Positions 661 through 31,811 of a stretch of DNA of 64,000 nucleotides are shown one piece after another. The notes below the pieces were generated by a model, which saw only the letters and a list, made by a program, of their open reading frames with translations, did no database searches and had not been told where the DNA came from. Source of the DNA: Laspinema olomoucense D3b (GTDB lineage: Bacteria; Cyanobacteriota; Cyanobacteriia; Cyanobacteriales; Laspinemataceae); contig NZ_JAMXFA010000036.1 in NCBI RefSeq assembly GCF_025370785.1, positions 1 through 64,000 on the forward strand. Direction: 5' to 3'. Each line of letters starts with the position of its first letter. Positions within the stretch are counted from its first letter, which is position 1. The translations under genes were made by a program, and so were the position numbers.

Positions 661-2250
661 ATGTCAGAGCCAACTAATCAAAATACAGGAAGTCAAGGAA
701 ACCAGGGCCAGCAAGGGAATGTTGCTGGTGTTAATTATGGTGTTCAAAATACTTTCAACGTTAGTGAGGGGCGATCATTATCTAAACAGGAGTATCGCAA
801 TCGTCAAAATATATTGACTCAGATGCGAACCGAGGTAGAAAGCCGTTTAACCCAGTCTATCCACCGGGCGGCGTTCGTGAATTTGGGCAAAGAACAGCAA
901 CCCCAGCAGGTGCAACGTCCTTGGGATATGTCGGTGAAGGTGGGTGAACAGCGCAGCGTTCAGTTACCCCCCCAGACGACGATTCTGGATGTATTTGATA
1001 ATCCCACCATTTCCGGCAAGTTCCTGATTTTAGGCAAACCGGGGGGCGGCAAAACCACGACCTTATTAGAGTTAGCGGAAGCCTTGATTGCGCGCGCAGA
1101 AGGGGATAGCGATGCCCCCATTCCGGTGATTTTGGAGCTTTCGACTTGGCAGGAGGTGACCAAACGGGAGTTTCCCAAAGTCTGGAAACAGAAAAAATAT
1201 GACCCTTCGATTAAGGAGTGGGTTCTGTCTCAGCTTATCAGTAAGGGGGTGAGTCAGAACATCGGGGAACAGTGGCTTCGGGAGAAGGAGTTAGTGCTGT
1301 TGTTGGATGGGTTGGATGAATTGCAGCCGGAACGTCAGGGGAAGTGTGTCCGAGCAATTAATCAGTTTTTAGGGGGTGAGTTTTCGCCGTTGCATTTGGT
1401 GGTGTGCAGTCGCAAGGAGGAATATGAAAACTATGAGGAAATGTTGCAGTTAAATGGGGCAATTTGTTTGGAGGATTTGACGAATGAGCAAATTCGGGAT
1501 TATTTTGCTTCGGTCAATCTAGGGGAGTTTTGGGAGAGCATCAAGGAGTCGGAGAAGATTGTCAACTTTATTCGTCAACCGTTGTTTTTAGCCATTACGA
1601 GTCTTGCTTATCAGCAGATTGATGTTGAGGAGTGGCGGACTTTAAATACCGAAGAGGAAGCAATCAATTATTTGCTTGGCGTTTATCGGTTTGAGAGACT
1701 GGGTAAAAAGCACAAAAGTACATTGTATCCCAATCAGGTGCCTGAATGGTTAATTACAAAAAATAGATTGATTAAGATTTCCAAAATTATGGAAAAATAT
1801 GAATCAAATTCATTTAATTTTTCCGAAAAAAACTTGGAAATCATAGATTCTTCTATTCAAAAGACAATAATAAATACAATCCCATTATTGCCTTATCTTT
1901 TAGTTCTATTTTATATTTTATTGTACTTAACTTTTTTTGCATTCAACCCAACTATTGCAAAGATATTAATGAATTTAGAGACTATTTTTGTGATCTGCTT
2001 AACTTTATTTATTATGTTTGATTCTTCTAAGACATTACGAAGAAATATTAAAATTAAAGTAATAGACACTATACTTCCGAGATTTGTTGTTATTAAAACT
2101 TTTAAATTATATATTTTAGAATTTTTTATTTTAGGTTTAATAGAGATAAAAAATATCTTTCTAAAAAGTCTTAAAATTCAAAAATCGCTCAAAAAATCAG
2201 AACGAAAACTAGATAGAAAAAATAGGGGGGTAAGTGAAATAAAAAATTAA
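661..2250 (+). CDS. NACHT-domain NTPase, N-terminal part up to an in-frame TAA
   Basis: NLR-like STAND NTPase of 529 residues before the stop. Residues 1-40 carry the Gly/Asn/Gln-rich motif shared with the upstream small protein. The NACHT domain follows: Walker A GKPGGGKTTT at about residue 121-130, Walker B LLLDGLDE at about 216-223, and the sensor-like VVCSRKEEY at about 245. From about residue 400 the coding DNA becomes very AT-rich and encodes two hydrophobic membrane segments. The TAA at 2248-2250 is followed in the same frame by 114 further sense codons (to 2592) whose translation matches the usual C-terminus of cyanobacterial NACHT membrane proteins, so the ancestral product was about 643 residues. 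The family acts in antiviral or programmed-death responses in bacteria. Whether the truncated protein still works is not known. Confidence 0.85.
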   Translation: MSEPTNQNTGSQGNQGQQGNVAGVNYGVQNTFNVSEGRSLSKQEYRNRQNILTQMRTEVESRLTQSIHRAAFVNLGKEQQPQQVQRPWDMSVKVGEQRSVQLPPQTTILDVFDNPTISGKFLILGKPGGGKTTTLLELAEALIARAEGDSDAPIPVILELSTWQEVTKREFPKVWKQKKYDPSIKEWVLSQLISKGVSQNIGEQWLREKELVLLLDGLDELQPERQGKCVRAINQFLGGEFSPLHLVVCSRKEEYENYEEMLQLNGAICLEDLTNEQIRDYFASVNLGEFWESIKESEKIVNFIRQPLFLAITSLAYQQIDVEEWRTLNTEEEAINYLLGVYRFERLGKKHKSTLYPNQVPEWLITKNRLIKISKIMEKYESNSFNFSEKNLEIIDSSIQKTIINTIPLLPYLLVLFYILLYLTFFAFNPTIAKILMNLETIFVICLTLFIMFDSSKTLRRNIKIKVIDTILPRFVVIKTFKLYILEFFILGLIEIKNIFLKSLKIQKSLKKSERKLDRKNRGVSEIKN

Positions 2251-4892: not shown

Positions 4893-5151
4893 AGTTTTCT
4901 TGTCAATTGGCAATTTAGGGTTTGACCCAATTATAGCATCACATCCTGCCCCGCTTTAGACATCCCCCTGTGACGGTGGTTGTCCCTCAACCCCTCGCCG
5001 AGTGGCGACTGCCGCAATACCTAGAAAGGGACCCAGGTTTTCTCTCCATACTGACGAATTCCTAAAAGTGTCTTTAACTTTAATGATTTGCCCCAGACAG
5101 AATAACTTTTGAGAAAAACTCAGGTTTTTTCCCTCAATCATTAAATTTATT

Positions 5152-6963
5152 CTATCGAAATCCTAATAGTCTCAACACGGGCATTAGTAAATAGTAACTA
5201 CAACCCAGACAAAAACTGCCGGTCATTCCGAGGAGGGCAAAAAAGGCGATGCTATCCCAGAATTGCGGCATTCCGATTCCCGAGGTGGCGGAAAATAGGT
5301 CTAAAATTAGGGGAAAATATGAACTATAGAGAAAGACGGCCATCACGATCGCAGTCCCGATCGCACTCATGGTCGCATGGAATAGTTGTGGTTTGGGTAA
5401 TCCTAACCCCAGGGTAATAGAGGCGATCGCAATTGCTGTAAATCCAACTAAATCCGGTGCAGCTAGGGTCTCACTGGTTGAACTCACCGCTAATACAAAC
5501 CATCCCAATCCATACCCAAATACTCCCATCAAGCCAGCCACGATAAATCGTCTTTGTTGTCCAAAACTTCCCGCTTCAGTTAATCCCAAAGCTGTACCTA
5601 AACCTGCCATTCCAAATAAAATTGCCACCGGATCAACGGCCAGTTGTAGATTAGGAAACCATTGTGCGATTAACTCACTTAGGCGGCTGCTGAGTCGGCT
5701 GCCCACAGGTAACCAATAGGCTAAGGCAAATCCGACTCCGGCACCGACACTCGCACCTAATCCGCCTAAGATAGTTCCTAATAAGGTATCAAAGCAGGCT
5801 GTAAATACCCAACTAATCAGATCTAAGGTGGTGCTCAGGATGCTTTCTAGGGTTTTGTAACTGACTATGCCTAGGGTGGCGATCGCCTTAATCGTCAATG
5901 TACCCACTCCCCAGCAAAATTTGATACTGTGCCTAGATGCCACCGCCGCAAACTCCGCCAAACGTCCACCCAGTCCCTGGTTGCGCTTGCGGACTAAGGT
6001 TTTTAAATACGAACCTTGTCCCAGTCGTCCTTGCAGTTCTGTTGCACTATCTAATCGCTTGTCAACCTGAAACTCCAGCATTTCATCGATGACCTTCACG
6101 AGATTCAGACTCACCCTGGCATGAGGATGCCAGCGACATTCTCCCGACATTCCATCATCGAAGTCCGTTGGAGATCGCCCGGTTAGCAGAAAAATTGCCG
6201 TTCGTCCCAAGGCATAAAAATCCGCTGCCGGTCCCACGGAACTCCCCATCATCTGTTCTGGAGGACTGTAACCCGGGGAGAACAACCGCGTGGAACTCGC
6301 CTGCTTGCCGCTGAGTTGTTTCACCCCGCCAAAATCGATCGCCACCAGTTGACCCACTGCACTTCCCCCCATCCTTCTATTAAATAAGGAGAAAGGAGTA
6401 CCCGTATTTGTCGGAGTCGCCGCCATGCGAACCATCAAATTTGTCGGTTTCAGGTCCCGGTGAATAATGGAATGGCGGTGCAACTCTTCCAGAATATCTG
6501 CTGCCTGCATCAACCAATCCACCACCAACGCCTCGGGAAACCCTTGGGGATAATCTCGGTGTAGCATCTCATCCAATGTAAACCCCTCGATTTTTTCCAT
6601 GACGAGACAAGGAAGGGTATGGGGTTGGGGATGTTTGAGAGAAATCTGAAAATAACCATCGCGATCGACCTTGGGAATTCCTGGGTGGGTCAGACTCGCC
6701 AAAACCGATGCCTCTTGTTCAAAGAGTTCCAAGGCTTTAGGCGATCGCTCACCCAACACCTTTAAGACTCGTTCCCGGTCCGTCCGCCGGTCATAAACGG
6801 TGAAAGTGACAGCAAAACCGCCGGTCCCTAATTTTTGTAAAGGAAGGTAACGGCCATTTAAAATCAGGGGGGTTCCACAACTATCACAAAAGTGATGACT
6901 CCGACTTTGGCCGGTGGGACTTGGACAATCCGGGTTGATGCAGTGGAGGAAAGCTGGCTGCAT
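5152..6963 (-). CDS. Membrane-anchored Ser/Thr protein kinase with zinc ribbon
   Basis: About 603 residues from ATG 6963; another ATG at 7029 would add 22 residues. The protein starts with a zinc-ribbon-like CxNPDC...FCDSCG motif, then a Hanks-type kinase domain: glycine loop KLGTGGFAVTF, catalytic Lys in RVLKVLG, HRDLKPTN catalytic loop and IDFGGVKQ in place of canonical DFG, followed by SPGYSPPEQM. The C-terminal 250 residues contain four or five hydrophobic segments, so the kinase is anchored in a membrane with the catalytic part in the cytoplasm. This is a common architecture for cyanobacterial signalling kinases; the substrates are unknown. The gene is divergent from rbcL and stands alone. 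Confidence 0.9.
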   Translation of the reverse strand: MQPAFLHCINPDCPSPTGQSRSHHFCDSCGTPLILNGRYLPLQKLGTGGFAVTFTVYDRRTDRERVLKVLGERSPKALELFEQEASVLASLTHPGIPKVDRDGYFQISLKHPQPHTLPCLVMEKIEGFTLDEMLHRDYPQGFPEALVVDWLMQAADILEELHRHSIIHRDLKPTNLMVRMAATPTNTGTPFSLFNRRMGGSAVGQLVAIDFGGVKQLSGKQASSTRLFSPGYSPPEQMMGSSVGPAADFYALGRTAIFLLTGRSPTDFDDGMSGECRWHPHARVSLNLVKVIDEMLEFQVDKRLDSATELQGRLGQGSYLKTLVRKRNQGLGGRLAEFAAVASRHSIKFCWGVGTLTIKAIATLGIVSYKTLESILSTTLDLISWVFTACFDTLLGTILGGLGASVGAGVGFALAYWLPVGSRLSSRLSELIAQWFPNLQLAVDPVAILFGMAGLGTALGLTEAGSFGQQRRFIVAGLMGVFGYGLGWFVLAVSSTSETLAAPDLVGFTAIAIASITLGLGLPKPQLFHATMSAIGTAIVMAVFLYSSYFPLILDLFSATSGIGMPQFWDSIAFFALLGMTGSFCLGCSYYLLMPVLRLLGFR

Positions 6964-7029: not shown

Positions 7030-7472
7030 GGCCAGGGTTGCGATCGCATTGTGGAACGTTCGTCCCCCCTGTATCCGGGTCAGGAAGCAGAACCCATCGC
7101 CTTCTTAACTGCGATCAATTGTATCGTTCCTGCTGCTCCCCACACCGAAATTCTGCCCGTCCTCGCCAAACTGAGCGTTTTATTATATCAGAAAGTTACC
7201 GTTTTATATTATAACAAAAAATTAATATTTATAACGAAAAATAAAGAAATATTATCGAGGAATAAAAGAACAATGATGTTTAACTTATTGTTTTCCTGAT
7301 ACTATTGTTATGCAGCAAAACGAAGCAGCCGACTGATTTCGCTCCACCGATCCCCGACGTGGGTTTGGTAAGCAATAGTACCCAGATAAGTGAATAGCTT
7401 GTCAGGAGAACTAAAAACCAGGACAACTGCAACGATTTTCGATGATTCCGATGATTCCTAGGAAGGGGGATT
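7030..7472. promoter_or_regulatory. rbcL upstream region
   Basis: About 440 bases between the divergent kinase and rbcL. The part 7180-7290 is strongly AT-rich. A weak promoter candidate is TTAACT (7280-7285) with TATTGT (7303-7308), 17 bases apart, each 4 of 6 to consensus. It would give a leader of about 160 bases containing the GTAN8TAC site at 7368. A good ribosome binding site (AGGAAGGGGGA) lies just before the rbcL ATG. Confidence 0.4.
7368..7381. promoter_or_regulatory. Perfect NtcA-type site GTAN8TAC upstream of rbcL
   Basis: The sequence GTAAGCAATAGTAC matches the NtcA consensus GTA-N8-TAC exactly and is centred about 98 bases before the rbcL start codon. NtcA is the global nitrogen regulator of cyanobacteria and has been reported to bind upstream of rbcL in Anabaena. 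No TAN3T -10 box lies at the 20-24 base distance expected for activation, so a repressing or modulating role is more likely if the site is used. Confidence 0.5.
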
Positions 7473-8903
7473 ATGTCTTACAGTTCAACCCAGACTCAAG
7501 CAAAAACCGGCTACCAAGCTGGCGTTAAAGATTATAGACTGACTTACTACACGCCGGATTACACTCCCAAAGATACCGACGTTTTGGCGGCATTCCGGAT
7601 GACCCCTCAGCCCGGAGTTCCCCCCGAAGAAGCAGGAGCTGCAGTAGCTGCTGAATCTTCTACCGGAACCTGGACCACAGTGTGGACCGACCTTTTGACC
7701 GACTTGGATCGGTACAAAGGCCGTTGCTACGACATCGAAGCGGTACCCAACGAAGAGAACCAGTATATCGCTTACGTTGCCTACCCCCTCGACTTGTTTG
7801 AGGAAGGTTCTGTTACCAATATGCTGACCTCCATCGTGGGGAACGTGTTTGGTTTCAAAGCCTTGCGTGCACTCCGCTTGGAAGATATGCGGATTCCCGT
7901 TGCCTACCTGAAGACCTTCCAAGGTCCTCCCCACGGCATCCAAGTTGAGCGCGACAAAATCAACAAGTATGGTCGTCCCCTGTTGGGTTGCACCATCAAA
8001 CCGAAACTCGGTTTATCTGCGAAGAACTACGGTCGTGCAGTATATGAATGCTTGCGCGGTGGTTTGGACTTCACCAAAGACGACGAAAACATCAACTCCC
8101 AGCCGTTCCAACGCTGGCGCGATCGCTTCTTGTTCGTTGCTGACGCTATCCATAAAGCTCAGGCAGAAACTGGCGAAATTAAGGGCCACTACCTCAACGT
8201 AACCGCCCCCACCTGCGAAGAAATGCTGAAACGGGCTGAGTTCGCCAAAGAACTCAAAATGCCCATCATCATGCATGACTTCTTAACCGCAGGGTTCACC
8301 GCCAACACCACCTTGGCTCACTGGTGCCGCGATAACGGAATCTTGTTGCACATTCACCGTGCTATGCACGCCGTTATCGACCGTCAGAAAAATCATGGTA
8401 TCCACTTCCGTCTGCTTGCCAAGTGCTTGCGGATGTCCGGTGGTGACCACATCCACACGGGAACCGTTGTGGGTAAACTCGAAGGCGAACGCGGCATCAC
8501 GATGGGCTTCGTCGATCTGCTCCGCGAAAACTATATCGAACAAGATAAATCTCGTGGGATTTACTTCACCCAAGACTGGGCATCCATGCCTGGGGTGATG
8601 GCTGTTGCTTCCGGTGGTATCCACGTATGGCATATGCCCGCACTCGTGGAAATCTTCGGTGACGACTCCGTGCTGCAATTTGGTGGTGGGACCTTGGGTC
8701 ACCCCTGGGGTAATGCTCCGGGTGCAACCGCCAACCGTGTTGCTTTGGAAGCTTGCGTTCAAGCTCGTAACGAAGGTCGCAGCTTGGCTCGTGAAGGGAA
8801 CGATATCCTCCGTGAAGCCGGACGTTGGTCTCCTGAGTTGGCTGTCGCTCTTGACCTCTGGAAAGAAATCAAGTTTGAGTTCGAGGCGATGGATACCGTC
8901 TGA
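7473..8903 (+). CDS. rbcL: RuBisCO large subunit, form IB
   Basis: Ribulose-1,5-bisphosphate carboxylase/oxygenase large chain of 476 residues, the full length for the cyanobacterial/plant form IB. It fixes CO2 on ribulose bisphosphate in the Calvin cycle inside carboxysomes, and its oxygenase reaction feeds photorespiration. The carbamylated lysine lies in [11 protein letters not shown], the catalytic lysine of the N-terminal barrel in [11 protein letters not shown], and loop 6 in [11 protein letters not shown]. The metal-binding KDDE set is intact. It is the first gene of rbcL-rbcX-rbcS. Codon use is strongly biased to C-ending codons, as for a highly expressed gene. The start is set by AGGAAGGGGGA 5 bases upstream. 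Confidence 0.99.
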
Positions 8904-21418: not shown

Positions 21419-21997
21419 ATGAATACTCTAGTCGCTGATAAATTATGCAGCTTTGAAGACTATCTCCAGTATGATGATGGAACCGATAACCGATATGAAT
21501 TAGTCAAGGGGAGATTAGAGCTTATGAATCCACCGACAATCAGACATTTACTGATTGCTGATTTTATTCGGGATAGCTTAAAAGCAGAAATTAATCGAAA
21601 ACAATTACCGTGGCTATGTTTTAAAGAAGCAGGGGTCAGAACCGGATTGCAGAAATCTCGGATAACCGATATCTGCGTAGTTTTACAAGAACAAGCCCTA
21701 GACTTGTTGGATAAATCTGCTGTTTTCCAAACCCCGCCTTTATTAGTAGTAGAAGTGGTCAGTCCTGAATCCATCAACCGGGACTATCGATATAAGCGAT
21801 CGGAATATGCAGCCGCCGAAATCGTCGAATATTGGATTGTAGACCCCATCTTAAATCAACTCTCCCTCTTGCGCCTAGAAGAAGGATTCTATGAAGAAAC
21901 CATATTAACAGCAAGTCAGCCCATAGTCTCTCAAGTTTTCCCCGAATTAACCTTAACGGTTGACCAAGTGTTAGCCGCCGGAAACCTCGGCGCTTGA
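21419..21997 (+). CDS. Uma2 family endonuclease-like protein (DUF820)
   Basis: 192 residues of the Uma2 family, which has a PD-(D/E)XK restriction-endonuclease fold and is greatly expanded in cyanobacteria. Seen: FEDYLQYDDGTDNRYELVKG with the conserved E, then DICVV carrying the motif Asp, and LLVVEVVSPESINRDYRYKRSEYAAA with ExV...K in place of a strict ExK, and the ending YWIVDPILNQLSLLRL. Members are thought to act in mobile-element or defence contexts; the natural role is unsettled. It is a single gene. Confidence 0.9.
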   Translation: MNTLVADKLCSFEDYLQYDDGTDNRYELVKGRLELMNPPTIRHLLIADFIRDSLKAEINRKQLPWLCFKEAGVRTGLQKSRITDICVVLQEQALDLLDKSAVFQTPPLLVVEVVSPESINRDYRYKRSEYAAAEIVEYWIVDPILNQLSLLRLEEGFYEETILTASQPIVSQVFPELTLTVDQVLAAGNLGA

Positions 21998-22121: not shown

Positions 22122-22655
22122 TCATTTGAGTGAATCTAAGACTTCACCTAATGGTAAATTCATTGTTTCGGAGATTTCCTCTGGGGTTAAACCTAATTCA
22201 TTGAACTTGGAAATAGTTTTTATAAGGGTAGAATTTAAAATATTTTTATTTTTGCTTTCCTGATTTGTGGGATTAGAGCGAGGTGAATCAGGATTAACAG
22301 TATCCTTATTATTTACTTCAAAATTATCCGGATTAGTGCAGAGGTTGAGGTTACCAATCTGGACGGGATTCCCAATGATTTGATGTTGAGAATTCACAAA
22401 TCCCAATCGTTCAATGGTAGCGCAAAAATTTGATTTGTTTAAGTCCTCGCCTAAAATTTGAGACAAAATTTGCCAAAGTTCGTATCCCTCATCTTTGACA
22501 TGACCCATCGTGCATTTATACTGTTCCGCAATGTCTGCATACTTCTCACCATTAAGGACGCCCTTCAAAATTGCCATTTGCAGATTATCAAGATGTTTAC
22601 CCGTTTGCTGAAACACTAAGTCATCAATTGATTTCAACACCGATTGCCAGTTCAT
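22122..22655 (-). CDS. vMAP-type N-terminal HTH protein
   Basis: 177 residues. The first 90 match the HTH domain that begins vWA-MoxR-associated proteins (vMAP) and many cyanobacterial conflict proteins: KSIDDLVFQQTGKHLDNLQ, ILKGVLNGEKYADIAEQYKC, GHVKDEGYELWQILSQILGE, NKSNFCATIERLG. Usually this domain is followed by an AAA/NACHT, TIR or CHAT module; here it is followed by a polar Asn/Ser/Pro-rich linker and a short second helix-turn-helix-like segment LGLTPEEISETMNLPLGEVLDS. With no catalytic domain, it may act as a DNA-binding regulator or adaptor. It is transcribed away from the nuclease-like operon at 23038, with short direct repeats between them. Confidence 0.75.
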   Translation of the reverse strand: MNWQSVLKSIDDLVFQQTGKHLDNLQMAILKGVLNGEKYADIAEQYKCTMGHVKDEGYELWQILSQILGEDLNKSNFCATIERLGFVNSQHQIIGNPVQIGNLNLCTNPDNFEVNNKDTVNPDSPRSNPTNQESKNKNILNSTLIKTISKFNELGLTPEEISETMNLPLGEVLDSLK

Positions 22656-23037
22656 AGTGCCGCGATCAACCCTCCCAAACTCTTTCCTATCCGCTATTAT
22701 CCGCTATTATCCGCCCTTTTAAGATTTTTTAAGAAAAGAGCCGTCTTTATCCGTCCTTTTCCGACTTGCCTAGAATAAAAGGAGCAGAAGACAATAAGGA
22801 TTGAGCGGGCGATCGCGCTGCCAGAACTTGAGCAATGCTTGTCTAGGGGCTTGCCAGTGAAGCTTGCTATCGGGACTCAAATCGTAAGCTGAGGAACTCT
22901 TAGGGTTGCAAGCCTGCGCGATCGGTCTGGACCCTTGAAAGCATTCTCAGTCCTACGGTCAGATCTGAGCAAGGTAAGGGGTGAGGGGCCAAAATTTACC
23001 GAAAATCTGAATTAAGAGGCGCAAGGAGCAAACGATT
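22656..23037. promoter_or_regulatory. Divergent intergenic region with phased TATCCG repeats
   Basis: Next to the HTH gene start, TATCCGC occurs at 22688, 22698 and 22708, exactly 10 bases apart (CTATTATCCG units), and related TTTATCCGTCCTTTT follows at 22747. Spacing by one helical turn is what an operator read by a multimeric HTH protein would show. The rest, 22780-23037, has no gene; a GAGGCGCAAGGAGC leader precedes the ATG at 23038. Confidence 0.5.
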
Positions 23038-23367
23038 ATGATTCAACTCATCGTCGGATGGGTTCAAGACTTCTTCAATTTTTCCAACGTCAAGGAGTTC
23101 AAACCCGTAGAAAAATTAACCCCTAGTCAAAAGGGGTACAAATTTGAGCATGATGAACTCAAACGCTTAATGCTGAGACTCAAACGATTTGAAACCGTTG
23201 AATTTACCGATGTAGAGGGGACCCCACTGACTCCACAAATTGTAGAAAATCGCTATGGTAAAGATGGGGGAATTGATTGCGTCATTCGGATTATTGCTCC
23301 CACGGAAAGAGGAGCTAAAATTGTGGCAACAAAAATTAGAAATATTTTGATAAACGGAGATTATTGA
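23038..23367 (+). CDS. N-terminal half of a split Mrr-like PD-(D/E)XK nuclease
   Basis: 109 residues. After a short hydrophobic start, LTPSQKGYKFEHDELKRLML matches the N-terminal KG..FE helix of Mrr/restriction-endonuclease-like proteins. NRYGKDGGIDCVIRI carries the GGID motif, whose Asp (codon at 23275) is the metal ligand. The ExK motif that should follow is absent here but is present in the next reading frame, which starts at ATG 23367, overlapping this gene's TGA (TGATG). I therefore read the two as halves of one nuclease made as two coupled polypeptides. About 20 residues after GGID have no counterpart in usual Mrr domains. Nuclease activity is inference. It is the first gene of a three-gene operon. 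Confidence 0.65.
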   Translation: MIQLIVGWVQDFFNFSNVKEFKPVEKLTPSQKGYKFEHDELKRLMLRLKRFETVEFTDVEGTPLTPQIVENRYGKDGGIDCVIRIIAPTERGAKIVATKIRNILINGDY

Positions 23368-23582
23368 TGGCCTATCAGAAGATTGCCTTAGAGTATAAAG
23401 ATCGCCATCTGACCCGGCCCATGTTAGATCAGATTGTAGGCGCTCAAACCCGGGCGGTTCCGGATGCAACAGAACTTATCATTCGATGCCGTTCCGCAGC
23501 TAAGACCGCCTATGAAGCGGTAGACTCCTACCCCATTAAAGTTACAATAATTGCTAGAGAAGTTACCCCAGAAGCCCTATGA
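23367..23582 (+). CDS. C-terminal half of the split Mrr-like nuclease
   Basis: 71 residues starting at ATG 23367. The sequence KIALEYKDRHLTRPMLDQIV carries the ExK catalytic pair (Glu codon 23391, Lys codon 23397) and corresponds to the Mrr pattern VQCK..L.RPDLEKFVG; VPDATELIIRCRSAAKTAYE and SYPIKVTII match the later strands and helix of the same fold. The start overlaps the previous stop by one base and the stop overlaps the next start (ATGA at 23579), so all three genes are coupled. No start codon or open frame upstream would merge it with the first half by a simple single shift. Confidence 0.65.
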   Translation: MAYQKIALEYKDRHLTRPMLDQIVGAQTRAVPDATELIIRCRSAAKTAYEAVDSYPIKVTIIAREVTPEAL

Positions 23583-24115
23583 CCTATACCCTTAACTTTG
23601 CCCTAAACTTGAACAAGGAGGGTGAAAATATTATCTATGATTCAGAGCAATTTGCGGATCAACCTATTCAGATATCAGTTCCGCAAATTATTACAATTTT
23701 GGAACGGTTCATCGGAAAACCATTTCACCGGGCTGGACTTATTGAAAATCGAAAATCAGAAAAGGTTCAGATTAAAGACGCTTTTTCCGAGAAAAAAGTT
23801 CAGGATGAAGTAAAGGCAATAAATGAAAATTTGATTGCCAAATCATCCCTAAAAGGTCTATCTGGTCAAGCCTATTACTGTCAAATTAAAGAGTTAGACA
23901 CCCAAAAAATCAATGAAATCACAAGTGATTTAAGTAACTATTTGCAAGAATCAATTTCCAGCATTAATTCGGAGAATTTTCTTGCTGATGAGACATCCGT
24001 TTTAATTTCTGCACTCAAAGAAGTGGTTGAAATTAGAAACTACTTAGCAAGGTATTTTAAAAAGGCTCCCAATAAAATGTATCGAAATGGATATTTTGTT
24101 ATTATTTTAATGTAA
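23579..24115 (+). CDS. Unknown third gene of the split-nuclease operon
   Basis: 178 residues with no recognised domain. The first part is beta-like (YTLNFALNLNKEGENIIYDS), the middle is strongly charged and helical (SEKKVQDEVKAINENLIAKS), and the C-terminal third is helical, ending KKAPNKMYRNGYFVIILM. The ATGA overlap with the preceding gene means tight coupling. It could be a specificity, adaptor or inhibitor protein for the nuclease; nothing in the sequence decides this. Base composition is more AT-rich than the housekeeping genes nearby. Confidence 0.65.
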   Translation: MTYTLNFALNLNKEGENIIYDSEQFADQPIQISVPQIITILERFIGKPFHRAGLIENRKSEKVQIKDAFSEKKVQDEVKAINENLIAKSSLKGLSGQAYYCQIKELDTQKINEITSDLSNYLQESISSINSENFLADETSVLISALKEVVEIRNYLARYFKKAPNKMYRNGYFVIILM

Positions 24116-24269: not shown

Positions 24270-25127
24270 ATGGAAACAGACCCGATATTTTACCGACTGT
24301 TTAAACAACAACCCAGTTGCTTCTTTGAATTGATTGGTCGTCCCGCCTCCGAAGCAGAAGCTTATGAATTCTCCTCTGTGGAACTCAAACAAACCGCCTT
24401 TCGCATTGATGGGTTGTTTATCCCCAAAGCTGAGTTTCCAGAAATGCCGCTGAATTTGGTGGAGGTGCAATTTTACAGCGACAAAAAATTTTATGCCAAT
24501 TTATTTGCCGAACTTTTTCTATACCTACATCAGAACAATCCCGCTCAAAACTGGCGAGTGGTGGTCATTTTTGGCCGACGCAGTTATGAACCGAAGGAAC
24601 TGGCCCCCTATCAAGCGCTACTCAATTCCCCTCAAGTTCAGCGTATTTATCTCGATGAGTTAGAAGCGGTCCCCGAAACCTCGTTAGGAATGCGGATTGT
24701 CCAGTTAATCATTGAGAAGCAAGACGCTTCTGCTGCGGAACAAGCCAGACAGCTTGTGGTTCAGGCAAGGCAGAACTTGACCGATGACGCCGATCGCGCA
24801 GAAGTTGTAGACTTAATAGAGACGGTCGTATTGTACAAGTTTTCTAGGTTAAGCCGCGAGGAGGTACAAGAAATGATAGGCGTGAATGAATTCAAGCAAT
24901 CCAGACTGTATCAAGATATTAAGCTCGAAGGCAAACTTGAAGGTCTGATGGAAGGCAAACTGGAGGGTAAACTTGAAGGCAAACTTGAAGGCAAACTTGA
25001 AGGCAAACTTGAAGGCAAACTTGAAGTAGTCCCGCAGTTGCTGTCTCAGGGATTTACGGTACAGCAAACGGCCCAAATTTTGGGATTAACCGTCGAACAA
25101 GTGCGCCAAGGTAGTCAAAATACCTAA
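24270..25127 (+). CDS. Rpn-like nuclease-family protein (DUF2887) with KLEG repeats
   Basis: 285 residues. The N-terminal 140 match the DUF2887/Rpn PD-(D/E)XK group: FYRLFKQQPSCFFELIGR, FRIDGLFIP with the catalytic Asp, and NLVEVQFYSDKKFYANLFAE with the ExQ..K variant motif. Residues about 175-215 (DDADRAEVVDLIETVVLYKF) are helical. Then a run of six to seven KLEG units encoded by a 12-base repeat (about 24925-25026) is followed by VVPQLLSQGFTVQQTAQILG, an HTH-like end. The family is linked to DNA-break and recombination promotion. Two extra copies of the C-terminal part follow downstream. Confidence 0.85.
   Translation: METDPIFYRLFKQQPSCFFELIGRPASEAEAYEFSSVELKQTAFRIDGLFIPKAEFPEMPLNLVEVQFYSDKKFYANLFAELFLYLHQNNPAQNWRVVVIFGRRSYEPKELAPYQALLNSPQVQRIYLDELEAVPETSLGMRIVQLIIEKQDASAAEQARQLVVQARQNLTDDADRAEVVDLIETVVLYKFSRLSREEVQEMIGVNEFKQSRLYQDIKLEGKLEGLMEGKLEGKLEGKLEGKLEGKLEGKLEVVPQLLSQGFTVQQTAQILGLTVEQVRQGSQNT
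24925..25026 (+). repeat. 12-base tandem coding repeat (GGCAAACTTGAA)
   Basis: About seven units of the 12-base sequence GGCAAACTTGAA and close variants, encoding Gly-Lys-Leu-Glu. The two downstream paralogous copies have only three or four imperfect units at the same place, so the number is variable. Confidence 0.85.
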
Positions 25128-25156: not shown

Positions 25157-25192
25157 TGCGGTAGGGTGATTGACTCTATCGCAGGATTTTTT
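25157..25192 (+). terminator. Terminator after the Rpn-like gene
   Basis: TGCGGTAG (25157-25164) and CTATCGCA (25176-25183) form a stem with one G-T pair, followed by GGATTTTTTAA. The same hairpin type follows the second copy. Confidence 0.7.
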
Positions 25193-25217
25193 AATCAAAG
25201 ATACTGTAGCTTTCGCA

Positions 25218-25508
25218 ATGACCGATGACGCCGATCGCGCAGAAGTTGTAGACTTGATAGAGACGGTCGTATTGTACAAGTTTTCTAGATTAAGCCGCGA
25301 GGAGGTACAAGAAATGATAGGCGTGAATGAATTCAAGCAATCCAAGCTGTATCAAGATATTAAGCTCGAAGGCATGATTGAAGGCAAGCTTGAAGGTAAA
25401 CTTGAAATAGTCCCGGAGTTGTTATCCCGGGGATTTACGGTAGATCAAACGGCCCAAATTTTGGGGTTAACTGTTGAACAAGTGCGCCAACAAATTCAAG
25501 AAACGTAG
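25218..25508 (+). CDS. Duplicated C-terminal segment of the Rpn-like protein, copy 2
   Basis: 96 residues from ATG 25218 (MTDDADRAEVVDLIETVVLY). It repeats the last third of the upstream Rpn-like protein nearly word for word, with fewer KLEG units (GMIEGKLEGKLE) and a kept HTH-like end RGFTVDQTAQILGLTVEQV. The nuclease domain is absent. It has its own terminator, so the duplication unit included gene end plus terminator (about 430 bases). It may be a decayed duplicate, or a free regulatory tail able to mix with the full protein. Confidence 0.6.
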   Translation: MTDDADRAEVVDLIETVVLYKFSRLSREEVQEMIGVNEFKQSKLYQDIKLEGMIEGKLEGKLEIVPELLSRGFTVDQTAQILGLTVEQVRQQIQET

Positions 25509-25537
25509 GTTAGACGAAGGGTTAAACCCTTTCAATT

Positions 25538-25574
25538 TGCGGTAGAGTCCATTACCCTACCGCAGTATTTTTTT
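25538..25574 (+). terminator. Terminator after copy 2
   Basis: TGCGGTAG (25538-25545) pairs perfectly with CTACCGCA (25557-25564), followed by GTATTTTTTTATTTT. Confidence 0.85.
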
Positions 25575-25593
25575 ATTTTAAAATAATCTTGCT

Positions 25594-25902
25594 TTGGAAA
25601 TAACTGATGACGCCGATCGCGCAGAAGTTGTAGACTTAATAGAGACGGTCGTATTGTACAAGTTTTCTAAGTTAAGCCGCGAGGAGGTAAAAAAGATGAT
25701 AGACGTGAGTGGATTCAAGCAATCCAGACTGTATCAAGATATTAAGCTCGAAGGCAAACTCGAAGCCAGACTGGAAGCCAGAATCGAAGGTAAGCTGGAA
25801 GTAGTCCCGCAGTTGCTGTCCCGGGGATTTACCGTAGAGCAAGCGGCTCAAATTTTGGAGTTAACCGTCGAACAAGTGCGCCAAGGAATTCAAGAAACTT
25901 AG
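25594..25902 (+). CDS. Duplicated C-terminal segment of the Rpn-like protein, copy 3
   Basis: 102 residues from a TTG at 25594 (LEITDDADRAEVVDLIETVV), the third copy of the same segment. It has diverged more: EVKKMIDVSGFKQS in place of EVQEMIGVNEFKQS, and KLEARLEARIEGKLE in the repeat zone. The HTH-like end RGFTVEQAAQILELTVEQV is kept. There is no ATG, so expression is doubtful. The gradient of divergence suggests stepwise tandem duplication. Confidence 0.5.
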   Translation: MEITDDADRAEVVDLIETVVLYKFSKLSREEVKKMIDVSGFKQSRLYQDIKLEGKLEARLEARIEGKLEVVPQLLSRGFTVEQAAQILELTVEQVRQGIQET

Positions 25903-28217: not shown

Positions 28218-31200
28218 TTAAATATCCAGGTCCATGAGTTTGAGTTGAGGACCGTAGGTTTCGATGAATTCGCGACGGGGGGCGACCCGATCGCCCATCA
28301 ATACCGTAAACACGCGATCGGCTTCTGCCGCATCCTCAATTTCCACCCGCTTCAAGGTGCGAGTTTCTGGATTCATGGTGGTTTCCCAGAGTTGAGTAGG
28401 CATCATTTCACCCAACCCTTTAAACCGCTGAATCGTGTAGTTCGCATTCGCCGGGAATTCGTTGCGGATCAGGGTTTGCAGTTCGCGATCGCTGTAACAG
28501 TAGAAATGATTCCGTCCCCGTTCTACTTTATACAGCGGCGGGCAAGCAATATAAACATACCCTTGATCCACCATTTCCCGTTGATAGCGATAGAAGAAAG
28601 TGAGAAGCAGGGTCCGGATGTGGGCTCCATCTACGTCCGCGTCGGTGTTATGTGCACATAACCCGCCAGTTCCGCAGACAAAGTTTTCATCCCCTTCTAC
28701 GGAGAAGTCATAAACATAGTCACCCACTAATTCAATCTCTTCAGCCGATATTACTTTCAGTCCCATTAAATCATCGCTGATGGGGACGAAATCCTGTGCT
28801 TTGCGAGTGGGACGGGCTAAATGGTCCTCCAACTGCGGTGCATAGGCGTGATGTTGCCAGATTGCTTGACAGAAGGCGATTTGCTCTTTCCCACAAATGG
28901 TCAGGGTGTAATAGGGATGGCGGGTTTGGATCGGCGCATCCGCTGGAGTGGAGGGTTGATGTTCGGTGGCAGTGGCAATTAACCCCAGTTGTCCGAACAG
29001 ATACAGCAACCCTTCTTTCAAGGCGGGGGAATTGGTAGTCCAGGAGAAGTTATTGGTGCCAATCGTGCCATCTCCGAGGAAATAGCCTTCCAAAAAGGCC
29101 AATTGCAGGTCTTCTGGGAGACTGAAGACTAAATCGGGCAGTTGCTTCTCATGGGCGGGTTTGGCTAAACCCCAGGCTTGCAATAAGCGTGCGGCAGCAA
29201 CACTATGGAAGTAGAGTTTAATGCCATCACTGTCCGGGTCATTATAGCGCCGTGGAGTTTCTCCGAAGGTGGTGGCGATCGCCTCACTCAATGCCGGAAT
29301 AAACCGCTCATCTTTTTTACCCAGATTTAAGCTAACTTGGTGTTTACTTAGGGTTCCCTCGGCGACATACCACCCCAAGAAGTTCATCAATTCCTTTGTA
29401 ATCGGCAAATAGCGATTAAAGGCTTTATCTTGATGCGCCTGGGGGACAATTTCCACCGCTTCCCCAAGTTGAATCAGTTCGCTGGGGGTGAAATACTCAA
29501 ATGCTTTGTAGGCACTGACTTCACGCCACAGCGCATTTTTGCTGGTATCATCCTGCGCTAAGAGGCGATCGAGTTTAGAAGGGACGGTTTCATAAACGAT
29601 ATTCTCGTTCCCCCCGATCGCCTCTAGGTATTCCAAAAAGTTCGGTAACGTCGGACGATTGATCCCCCGTTCCCAATGACTGATGGTAATCGGTTGTTTG
29701 ACACCACAGACGGTTGCCACCTGTTTTTGGGTGATACCGGCCATTTTCCGTTGGGAAATCAGTTGTTGCCATGCCGTCGCTTCCAATTCCACCCGAGGGT
29801 CATTCCATTCCCCTGGGGTGGCAACTTTAGCCAGCAGACGCTGACTGGCAATCCGGCGCACATCTTCGCCTTTTAAGTAGAGCGATCGCGTCAGTCCAGC
29901 GCGATACAAGGTCTCCAGCAAATCAATCCGGGTTGGACTTTCTGCCGGACGCGGTAACCGTCGAGAGGCGACTAACAAATCTCCCGGTTTGACTTCGTTC
30001 CCTTTTTTGAGAATCACTTCCCCGTTTTCATAGACGAATACGCTATGGGAGGAGGTGACTTTGACTGAGCGATTATACCGGGTGGTAATTTTATACATGG
30101 CTTCTTCATGGCCATGTCGAATCACCGCTTTCAAGGGTTTAAAGCGGGTGGCATGGGTCACGGGGTCAAAGGACACCACGCGATAGCGTTCGGGACTGCG
30201 ACGCCCTTCTACGCACTCGTCGATAAATTGACCAATTTTGACGAACTCAGTTTGCCCTTTGTCATCCATGACCAGGGTGGGTTCGTCTCCCGCTACGCTC
30301 ATGATGATGATACGATGATAGCGCAATTGTGAGGAGTCAAATTCTTCCCCTTTAATCCCTAAACCGAGGGCAGCAATTAAGGCTTGGATTTCGGTATTCT
30401 TGTAAATCTTGGCATCATCGGTTTTTTCGATATTCAGGATTTTACCGCGCAAAGGGAGGATGGCTTGGAAGCGGCGATCGCGTCCTTGTTTGGCACTGCC
30501 GCCCGCACTATCCCCTTCTACAATGTAGATTTCACTTTCGCTGGGGTCTTTGGTACTACAATCCGCCAGTTTTCCAGGCAGGGGGGACGATTCTAAAACC
30601 GATTTCCGGCGAACCAATTCCCGGGCGCGTCGGGCAGCTTCTGCGGCATTATAAGCTTGAATGGCCCGTTCTAAAATCGCATCTGCCACACTGGGACGAA
30701 ATTCTAAATACTCCGTGAGCACTTCACCCACTAAAGAATCGACAATTCCCCGCACTTCGGTATTGCCTAATTTGGTCTTGGTTTGCCCTTCAAATTCCGG
30801 GTCTGGCACTTTCACGGAAATTACGGCAGTCAACCCTTCCCGAACGTGTTCACCGCCGAGATTAGAGTCGCCTTCTTTGAGTTTATTCCGTTTGCGGGCG
30901 ATCGCATTCATAGTCCGTGTCAGGACAGCTTTCAGTCCTTCTAGGTGCGTTCCTCCATCAATGGTCCGGATGTTGTTGGCAAACCCAAGGACGTTATCGG
31001 TGTAAGCATCAGTACACCATTGCAACGACACTTCCACATGAACATTATTACGCTCGCCTTCGACGTAAATAATTTCTTCATGAAGGGGCTGTTTGTCTCG
31101 GTTCATGTATTCTACATATTCCCGAATTCCACCTTCATAGCAATAGGTTTCAACCCTTGGCTCATTATTTTTGAGCAGGTCAATCCGATTATCGGAAAAG

Positions 31201-31811
31201 GTGATTTTAACCCCAGCATTCAGGTAGGCCAGTTCGCGCAATCGTCCCGCTACGGTGCTGTAATCAAATTCAATGCCGGTACTGAAAATTTGCAGGTCCG
31301 GTTTAAAGCAAACGGAGGTTCCAGTGCGATTTTCTTTAATCGGTTTGGCTTCCAATTCTCCAATGGCTGCACCCCGTTCATACCGTTGGGTATGGACTTT
31401 TTTCTCCCGCCAAACCGTGACTTCCACCCATTCTGATAAGGCATTAACTACGGAGATCCCAACCCCGTGCAATCCTCCAGAGACTTTATAACCGCCTCCT
31501 CCAAATTTACCACCGGCGTGGAGGACGGTCATCACCGTTTCCAGGGCGGACCTTCCTGTTTTAGAATGGATGTCCGTAGGAATACCTCGACCGTCATCGG
31601 TTACGGTACAAGAGCCATCGGGATTGAACTCGATTTCAATATGGGTACAGTGGCCAGCAAGCGCCTCATCGATCGAGTTGTCCACAACCTCGTAAACTAG
31701 ATGGTGGAGTCCTCGGGGTCCGGTGGTCCCGATGTACATCCCCGGTCGCTTGCGTACTGCTTCGAGTCCTTCAAGAACTTGTATTTGGTCAGCGCTGTAG
31801 TTGCTGGTCAT
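28218..31811 (-). CDS. gyrB: DNA gyrase subunit B containing an intein
   Basis: 1197 codons: a GyrB of 646 residues interrupted by a 551-residue intein. N-extein (1-504) has the GHKL ATPase motifs [23 protein letters not shown] and [15 protein letters not shown], the transducer, and the start of the TOPRIM domain [20 protein letters not shown]. The intein sits immediately before [11 protein letters not shown], the metal-binding DxD motif of TOPRIM, so unspliced protein cannot be active. The C-extein (1056-1197) carries [11 protein letters not shown] and the usual end. With GyrA it supercoils DNA using ATP. The gene is divergent from miaA. Confidence 0.97.
28647..30299 (-). mobile_element. Intein with LAGLIDADG-type endonuclease and XRE-type HTH, inside gyrB
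   Basis: The insert starts with Ser ([15 protein letters not shown]), ends GTGGLCAHN and is followed by Thr as the +1 residue, all expected for self-splicing. [21 protein letters not shown] is the block B-like region with its His. Two dodecapeptide-type motifs, [10 protein letters not shown] and [10 protein letters not shown], mark a LAGLIDADG (DOD) homing endonuclease at about codons 810 and 905, with acidic residues kept in both. Between the splicing and endonuclease parts lies [26 protein letters not shown], a textbook XRE-type helix-turn-helix (about 29620-29740), probably for site recognition. [15 protein letters not shown] is block F. Length is 551 residues; the element looks complete and active. 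Confidence 0.93.

What the first reader, a model, noticed from the sequence alone, without database searches (positions are those of the whole stretch)
22122..24115. Candidate conflict module: vMAP-type HTH gene facing an operon with a split PD-(D/E)XK nuclease
A solitary vMAP-type HTH protein (22122-22655) is divergent from three overlapping genes (TGATG and ATGA junctions). The first two carry the two halves of a Mrr-like nuclease and the third is unrecognised. The HTH domain is known from NTPase-dependent conflict systems, but here there is no NTPase, vWA or MoxR gene. I do not recognise this gene set as any described system.
Basis: partly seen in the sequence, partly recalled or inferred. 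Interest (0 to 1): 0.8.

Follow-up and report, generated by a model that had tools for sequence, protein, structure and literature searches.

The report
Switch gene with swappable cargo genes
In a filamentous cyanobacterium a small DNA-binding switch gene with its own row of repeated binding sites faces an operon that seems to make a nuclease in two pieces, and related cyanobacteria carry the same kind of switch and sites in front of many unrelated genes, so the cargo appears to be exchanged behind a fixed control head.

Summary
The layout is real: three coupled genes (109, 71, 178 codons) face a 177-aa HTH gene. The trio is complete in six other genomes; of the seven copies, four face a solitary HTH, one an HTH fused to an NB-ARC NTPase, one neither, one is cut by a contig end. 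ORF1 and ORF2 look like complementary halves of a PD-(D/E)XK fold (GGID in one, ExK in the other; purifying selection; no fused form found), but no sequence search gives a significant nuclease match. ORF3 matches nothing convincing.

The larger result is upstream. The HTH promoter carries two arrays of 10-bp direct repeats (about CGGAWAAWRR); the exact core pattern occurs twice in the 7-Mb genome, both here. In 56 HTH loci repeats are present in 40; the nearest upstream gene is divergent in 35 of 38 repeat-bearing loci and belongs to about 30 families. Between close relatives homology usually ends just past the repeats while the cargo differs. Three cargo types face a solitary HTH in some genomes and an HTH-NTPase in others.

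Best reading: a STAND-derived, self-regulating switch with exchangeable cargo, here a probable two-subunit nuclease. DNA binding, nuclease activity and defence are inferred.

The parts
22122..22655 (-). Solitary HTH protein, 177 aa; N-terminal sigma-region-4/LuxR-like HTH, second HTH-like motif at the C-terminus
   Evidence: HTH matches all below the curated cut-offs; 7 further family matches in the same genome, open frames 276-485 aa; dN/dS 0.16-0.23
22691..22713 (-). Proximal repeat array, 3 copies of a CGGATAATAG-like unit, 10-bp period, 36-58 bp before the HTH start codon
22741..22763 (-). Distal repeat array, CGGAAAAGGA CGGATAAAGA CGG; 30 bp start-to-start between the facing units of the two arrays
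22761..22800 (+). Possible promoter of the divergent operon beginning at the outer edge of the distal array (CTTG ... GACAAT); tentative
   Evidence: By-eye reading of the upstreams; not found by the consensus scan
22881..22890 (.). Place where G002 carries about 280 bp more, with a small membrane-protein-like gene that G442 has too; absent here and in G006
23038..23367 (+). ORF1, 109 aa; proposed first half of a PD-(D/E)XK nuclease (invariant G-x-D-G-G-I-D, D80)
23367..23582 (+). ORF2, 71 aa; proposed second half (invariant E9-x-K11; predicted beta-alpha-beta-alpha-beta)
23579..24115 (+). ORF3, 178 aa, unknown alpha/beta protein, fast-evolving; its strong matches in 386 phylum genomes lie only at trio loci
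21419..21997 (+). Uma2-family gene, flank of the insertion site
24270..25127 (+). DUF2887 gene, other flank

Best explanation
The locus is one member of a modular family of cyanobacterial loci made of a constant head and an exchangeable cargo. The head is an HTH gene with, typically, a 3+3 array of 10-bp direct repeats upstream. By inference, the HTH protein (solitary here, fused to a NB-ARC-type ATPase in relatives) binds the repeats cooperatively, as the STAND activator MalT does at its boxes, controls its own gene and switches the divergent operon. The cargo here is ORF1-ORF2-ORF3: ORF1 and ORF2 probably fold together into one PD-(D/E)XK-like nuclease whose active site is completed only when the two polypeptides meet (Asp from ORF1, Glu-x-Lys from ORF2), with ORF3 as accessory, targeting or immunity partner. 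The likely use is a conflict effector kept low until the switch is thrown. Shown: genes, selection, operator repeats, divergence, differing cargo behind similar heads, same cargo behind solitary HTH and HTH-NTPase. Inferred: binding, sign of regulation, nuclease activity, how cargo is exchanged, defence role.
For: Operator: the exact repeat pattern occurs twice in 7.02 Mb, both before this gene, reversed-pattern control 0; in 56 HTH upstreams CGG pairs at spacing 10 number 137, at 20 number 76, at every other spacing from 4 to 25 at most 4; two or more pairs in 40 of 56 upstreams against 5 of 5,152 control windows; inter-array distance 30-31 bp in 20 of 31 gaps. Divergence: nearest called upstream gene divergent in 35 of 38 repeat-bearing loci, 8 of 14 repeat-poor ones (Fisher p 0.008), and 13 of 15 HTH-NTPase loci with a called neighbour, of 21 examined. 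Exchange: of 53 pairs with at least 80% nucleotide identity and unrelated upstream ORFs, homology ends 83-175 bp upstream of the HTH start in 42 (hand count), e.g. L187/L188 in one genome and L190/L192 with the same downstream neighbourhood. Interchange: trio, pore-like pair and DUF6232-like cargo face both HTH types. The G442 HTH lies in another supported clade (100/99) than the window's (99/97) though the cargo is the same. Nuclease.
Against: No binding or activity data. No significant sequence match of the halves to a nuclease family; the fold match is weak (best E 0.086) and other folds are listed too. One complete trio copy (G331) has no HTH and no visible repeats; the Planktothrix HTH-NTPase has no repeats either. 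No repeat pair in 12 of 56 HTH loci and one pair in 4. 7 of 19 inspected repeat clusters are not before an HTH gene. 11 of the 53 close pairs break elsewhere. Many cargos look secreted by eye or metabolic, which fits a conflict role poorly. No defence island seen.
Confidence: 0.6

Rival explanations
1. Type II toxin-antitoxin-like unit: the split nuclease is a toxin and the HTH protein (or ORF3) its antitoxin and autorepressor.
For: Small divergent unit with a repeat operator, gained or lost as a unit within the genus: absent between Uma2 and cobJ/H in G003, G004, G005 and G007, present in G000, G002 and G006; G001 was not examined there.
Against: Related HTHs face about 30 unrelated gene families, so a dedicated antitoxin role for the HTH is unlikely; the trio exists without an HTH in G331. 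ORF3 as antitoxin is not excluded.
Confidence: 0.2
2. ORF1-ORF2 is an ordinary one-chain nuclease broken by a frameshift (decay or sequencing error).
For: The halves are colinear with one Mrr-type domain; degenerate copies exist (G424 broken ORF1, G159 orphan ORF2).
Against: Same break in 7 of 7 complete copies over several families, with different stop codons; purifying selection on both pieces; no convincing fused relative in 386 phylum genomes (10 genomes with only weak matches, E 0.02-0.09, nearly all in long frames, set aside as chance).
Confidence: 0.05
3. ORF1 and ORF2 are joined in translation by programmed frameshifting at TRATG rather than made as two subunits.
For: The ORF2 frame is open a few codons upstream of its ATG; overlap conserved.
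Against: No conserved slippery heptamer seen at the junctions (by eye); stop type varies.
Confidence: 0.08
4. ORF1 and ORF2 are not a nuclease at all; the two small alpha/beta proteins serve another role.
For: No profile hit; Foldseek hits for ORF2 are weak and mixed, glycosyltransferases and chaperonins among them.
Against: Invariant GGID and ExK in the order of PD-(D/E)XK; top-ranked fold is RPB5, EndoMS/NucS also listed.
Confidence: 0.3

Closest known systems
STAND transcription activators, MalT type (PMC4381067; passages and start of the abstract seen)
   Same: HTH plus NOD-type ATPase in the relatives; arrays of binding boxes; multimerisation allows cooperative binding
   Different: HTH at the N-terminus; many copies have no ATPase; one divergent, differing operon beside each gene; binding not shown
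VMAP / vWA-MoxR ternary conflict systems (PMC7159879 and PMC10907252; passages seen)
   Same: NTPase switch with diverse effectors; passages list REase effectors, among them Mrr-like, and cyanobacterial members; PMC10907252 mentions an HTH gene in place of VMAP at one locus
   Different: No vWA, MoxR or VMAP protein among the four genes and two flanks scanned; effectors are separate divergent operons, not fusions
TRADD-N / ECF-like HTH conflict systems (PMC8195603; passages seen)
   Same: ECF-like HTH proposed there to give a transcriptional response in conflict
   Different: No TRADD-N domain identified here; no repeat operator in the passages seen
Sigma-region-4 proteins with NB-ARC in cyanobacteria (PMC11119718; passages seen)
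   Same: Lists NB-ARC as an accessory domain of cyanobacterial sigma-like proteins; may include some HTH-NTPases met here (not checked)
   Different: 'divergent' and 'direct repeat' have 0 occurrences in its main text
Mrr / PD-(D/E)XK restriction nucleases (Pfam PF04471)
   Same: GGID and ExK motifs, alpha-beta order, colinear weak profile alignment
   Different: Two polypeptides with the active site divided between them; no Pfam match
Integron-type cassette platforms (recalled, nothing read)
   Same: Constant expression platform, variable cargo
   Different: No integrase or attC-like site was looked for or noticed; one divergent operon at a time

Membership tests
PD-(D/E)XK nuclease, Mrr type | Catalytic Asp and Glu-x-Lys in the fold order | tested here: met
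   GGID invariant in 7 of 7 ORF1; E9-x-K11 invariant in 8 of 8 ORF2, the orphan in G159 included
PD-(D/E)XK nuclease, Mrr type | Significant match to a nuclease profile (Mrr_cat or other) | tested here: not met
   hhalign P 0.005-0.03 only
PD-(D/E)XK nuclease, Mrr type | Restriction-endonuclease-like fold | tested here: inconclusive
   ORF2 alone: b-a-b-a-b, pLDDT 84; best match RPB5 E 0.086 (its fold class recalled), EndoMS/NucS ranks 32 and 46; ORF1 not folded
VMAP / vWA-MoxR ternary system | MoxR ATPase, vWA protein and third component together | tested here: not met
   No such domain in the four genes and two flanks; none noticed by eye among the window's ORFs of 250 aa or more; one relative (G437) has a sub-threshold vWA-like gene beside the trio
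STAND transcription regulator (MalT-like) | NB-ARC/NOD ATPase domain | tested here: not met
   Absent in the 177-aa window protein; present in L041 (NB-ARC E 8.6e-12); Walker A pattern in 18 of 21 long relatives
STAND transcription regulator (MalT-like) | Cooperative binding to repeated boxes near the target promoter | not testable with these tools
   Repeat arrays found; binding needs experiment
Type II toxin-antitoxin | Dedicated antitoxin that neutralises the partner toxin | tested here: inconclusive
   Related HTHs face unrelated cargos, against dedication; no toxicity data

The most novel reading that the evidence does not exclude
Cyanobacteria carry a large, undescribed class of cargo-exchange loci: a fixed HTH or HTH-STAND switch with a 3+3 repeat operator, behind which unrelated divergent effector operons (split nuclease, NYN RNase, lectins, GTPases, pore-like and secreted proteins) are swapped by recombination at the operator's outer edge, giving an NLR-like transcriptional immune switch with replaceable output; one output is a nuclease whose active site is divided between two subunits.
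Probability: 0.4. Interest if true: 0.87.

Novelty: new variant of a known kind. Interest (0 to 1): 0.74.

Why it matters
It gives one simple, testable rule (HTH gene plus CGGA repeats, read the gene that faces it) for finding candidate effector operons in cyanobacteria, many without any annotated domain; it suggests how NB-ARC-type ATPases in bacteria may work as transcription switches; and it offers a nuclease that may become active only when two separately made halves meet.

Tried and rejected
Defence-island reading: of six window proteins PADLOC matched only the common Uma2 family strongly; ORF3 gave Cas13-ApeA at E 0.0013, an AI-designed barrel in the PDB at E 0.0067 and an NCBIfam methyltransferase at E 0.0088, which disagree with one another and which I treat as noise. 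Mobility: no ORF1 relative in viral contigs and none of ORF1 or ORF3 in plasmids; distant HTHs on 5 cyanobacterial plasmid records and in Planktothrix phage PaV-LD, 2 records of one phage. ORF3 fold: model pLDDT 79 but no PDB match below E 0.59. ORF3 profile in 386 genomes: three genomes at strong E, all trio loci; 4 weak matches (E 0.001-0.003) set aside. ORF1 profile in 388 order genomes: 7 strong, 15 weak (E 0.004-0.1) set aside. Joined profile in 386 phylum genomes: 4 strong, 10 weak (E 0.02-0.09) set aside; no convincing fused form. RNA family near the locus: none. Consensus promoter scan: 7 found against 5.8 expected, not informative. Remnant of the membrane gene in the window: only 7-10 bp matches.

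Literature: searches showed me no description of the repeats, of an HTH with exchangeable divergent cargo, or of a two-polypeptide Mrr-like nuclease; only listed papers were seen, the library is open-access only, and the last point rests alone.

Biases: the 56-locus survey holds 54 of the 65 solitary HTH matches (hand counts) plus L139 and L147, which came in through the repeat search itself (without these two, repeats in 38 of 54). In L139 and L210 the HTH frame is broken and in L212 and L225 it is short. Loci share ancestry, so the p-values are too small. Cargo families were counted on the first called upstream ORF, so 'about 30' (hand count: 30 clusters in the 35 divergent repeat-bearing loci) is rough: the trio is split in two by the extra membrane gene, and some ORFs may be spurious. 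In 'different' means no BLASTP link between upstream divergent ORFs; some such pairs are contig-edge or non-divergent cases (L213; L194, L195, L197, L036). L189 and L204 have no clear divergent cargo. L041 entered the NTPase set because of its cargo and L136 because of its repeats; the other long relatives were chosen by frame length, and 18 of 21 show the Walker A pattern, the other three variants of it. The shared GTPase cargo (L078/L222) rests on a short P-loop-type match (E 7e-8). Three repeat clusters came without a locus and were not inspected.

Full report
What is there. The window is part of a 7.02-Mb genome; its nearest named relative met here is Oscillatoria sp. HE19RPO (contig length 26,426 equals that of G002:C49). 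ORF1 (109 aa), ORF2 (71 aa from ATG 23367) and ORF3 (178 aa) are coupled by TGATG and ATGA overlaps and face a 177-aa HTH protein across 382 bp.

Are they genes? The trio is complete in G000, G002, G006 (same genus), G290 (Planktothrix rubescens), G331 (a Thermosynechococcaceae MAG), G437 and G442. G424 has a broken ORF1 and G159 only an ORF2-like gene. The family is rare: an ORF2 search hit 4 of 386 phylum genomes, own included; an ORF1 profile found strong matches in 7 of 388 order genomes, own and the broken one included, and weak ones in 15 more; a pattern-based scan of a collection of 84,980 species, which may leave out the window's own genome, returned three loci. ORF1 and ORF2 overlap as TRATG in 7 of 7, with TGA in three and TAA in four. 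Nei-Gojobori dN/dS within the genus is well under 1 for all four genes. So the split is an old, maintained state, and ORF3 is a real but fast-evolving partner.

Nuclease? ORF1 carries G-x-D-G-G-I-D and ORF2 carries E-x-K at the start of a b-a-b-a-b unit. This is the order seen in PD-(D/E)XK enzymes of the Mrr kind; I compared them with 11 Mrr_cat proteins from this genome and relatives. Profile-profile alignment is colinear but weak: P 0.016 over 52 columns for ORF2, 0.0054 over 12 columns for ORF1, and 0.028 for the joined profile, which aligned only through its ORF2 part. Foldseek on the ORF2 model puts RPB5 first (E 0.086, probability 0.99) and lists EndoMS and a NucS-type repair endonuclease (5gkj rank 32, 2vld rank 46); that the RPB5 jaw has a restriction-endonuclease-like fold is recalled. 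Against: no curated family matches either half or, in Pfam, the joined form, and Foldseek also lists unrelated folds. I put the nuclease reading at about 0.65.

ORF3. The model is fair (pLDDT 79, pTM 0.71) with a low-confidence linker at 60-91, but has no PDB relative at a useful E-value. In 386 phylum genomes its strong matches are all at trio loci.

The divergent gene. HTH relatives are common: 56 of 300 order genomes at E 1e-30 or better; by my count of that table 65 matches lie in short frames and 15 in frames of about 460-510 aa. In Planktothrix the protein facing the trio is this kind of HTH fused to an NB-ARC ATPase, 470 aa. G442, in another family, has a solitary HTH facing the trio with a 67-aa membrane-like protein between, as in G002; in the window that gene is gone. 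G331 has no HTH there, and in G437 the contig ends about 120 bp upstream.

The operator. Upstream of the HTH start lie two arrays of three 10-bp direct repeats. The exact core pattern occurs twice in the genome, both here; the reversed control pattern none; a looser version can be read before one long paralogue (L076). Of 19 repeat clusters that I could inspect among those found in 39 genomes, by hand count 12 sit within about 125 bp upstream of an HTH-family gene; the 7 others include three copies of one PAS-like gene. Over 56 HTH upstreams CGG pairs peak at spacing 10 (137) and 20 (76) against 0-4 at other spacings, and 40 of 56 have two or more pairs against 5 of 5,152 control windows. The unit is about CGGAWAAWRR; the two arrays are 30-31 bp apart in 20 of 31 gaps, 41 bp in 5, other distances in 6. 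The cargo-side edge of the distal array often reads CCGnCTTG, which could be a -35 element, so a protein bound there would sit next to the cargo promoter (tentative).

Cargo. In repeat-bearing loci the nearest called upstream gene is divergent in 35 of 38, in repeat-poor ones 8 of 14. Those 35 fall into about 30 sequence families. Of 30 neighbour proteins scanned by Pfam 10 match a family above its cut-off (two NYN RNases, a ricin-type lectin, a MIR-domain protein, an AIG1 GTPase, a radical SAM protein, DUF1036, DUF6232, a PIN domain, a RelB-like antitoxin), one is below cut-off and 19 have no match at E 0.01; many begin with signal-peptide-like sequence by eye. Of 53 pairs of loci at least 80% identical over the HTH region and with unrelated upstream ORFs, homology ends 83-175 bp upstream in 42 (hand count); over all 499 'different' pairs the median end is 101 bp, over 20 'same' pairs 287 bp. 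L187/L188 lie in one genome; L190/L192 keep the same downstream neighbourhood while the cargo differs. The window's HTH and that of G442 lie in different supported clades although their cargo is the same. Cargo shared between solitary HTH and HTH-NTPase loci: the trio, a pore-like pair (first gene 52-54% identity), a DUF6232-like gene (22-25%) and, weakly, a GTPase. The HTH-NTPase loci have a divergent neighbour in 13 of 15 called (21 examined) and two or more repeat pairs in 7 of 21; 18 of these 21 show the Walker A pattern.

Presence and absence. Within the genus HTH and trio come and go together: G003, G004, G005 and G007 have Uma2-DUF2887-cobJ/H without them, G000, G002 and G006 have both; G001 was not examined there.

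Mechanism, most likely. HTH protein binds its repeats, sets its own level and throws the divergent promoter; in the NTPase forms ATP-driven multimerisation would do this on a signal, as for MalT (PMC4381067, passages). Which sign the solitary form has is open. When expressed, ORF1 and ORF2 assemble a nuclease; splitting the active site may guard against stray activity. ORF3 may aim or restrain it. The use in conflict is inferred from the kind of cargo and from the described REase effectors of NTPase conflict systems (PMC7159879, passages), not from location.

Verdict.

Noticed in passing
28218-31811 (-): DNA gyrase subunit B interrupted in frame by an intein-like insert with homing-endonuclease-like motifs (labels recalled, read by eye).
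   Followed up: no
661-2250 (+): 529-aa NACHT-like P-loop protein with a low-complexity N-terminus, a possible second conflict protein (read by eye).
   Followed up: no
25170-25902 (+): Two tandem partial copies of the DUF2887 C-terminus after the full gene; fragments also flank the cassette in relatives.
   Followed up: partly
L078 (G000:C81), 499-2821: Same genome: an HTH-NTPase-like gene faces a P-loop GTPase, the same layout with another cargo.
   Followed up: partly
L072 (G437), 5048-6616: A sub-threshold vWA-like protein (VWA_2 E 1.3e-4) lies convergent to the nuclease trio.
   Followed up: no
Planktothrix phage PaV-LD, 84123-84347: A cyanophage encodes a relative of the HTH domain (44% over about 75 aa) in a hypothetical protein.
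   Followed up: no
L033/L206 and L226/L229/L237: A conserved pair of glycine-rich membrane-like proteins faces a solitary HTH in some genomes and an HTH-NTPase in others; possible pore-forming cargo.
   Followed up: partly
L040 (G331), 7186-7611: The trio of the Thermosynechococcaceae MAG has a small gene with sub-threshold CopG/BrnA antitoxin matches upstream in the same direction instead of an HTH.
   Followed up: no
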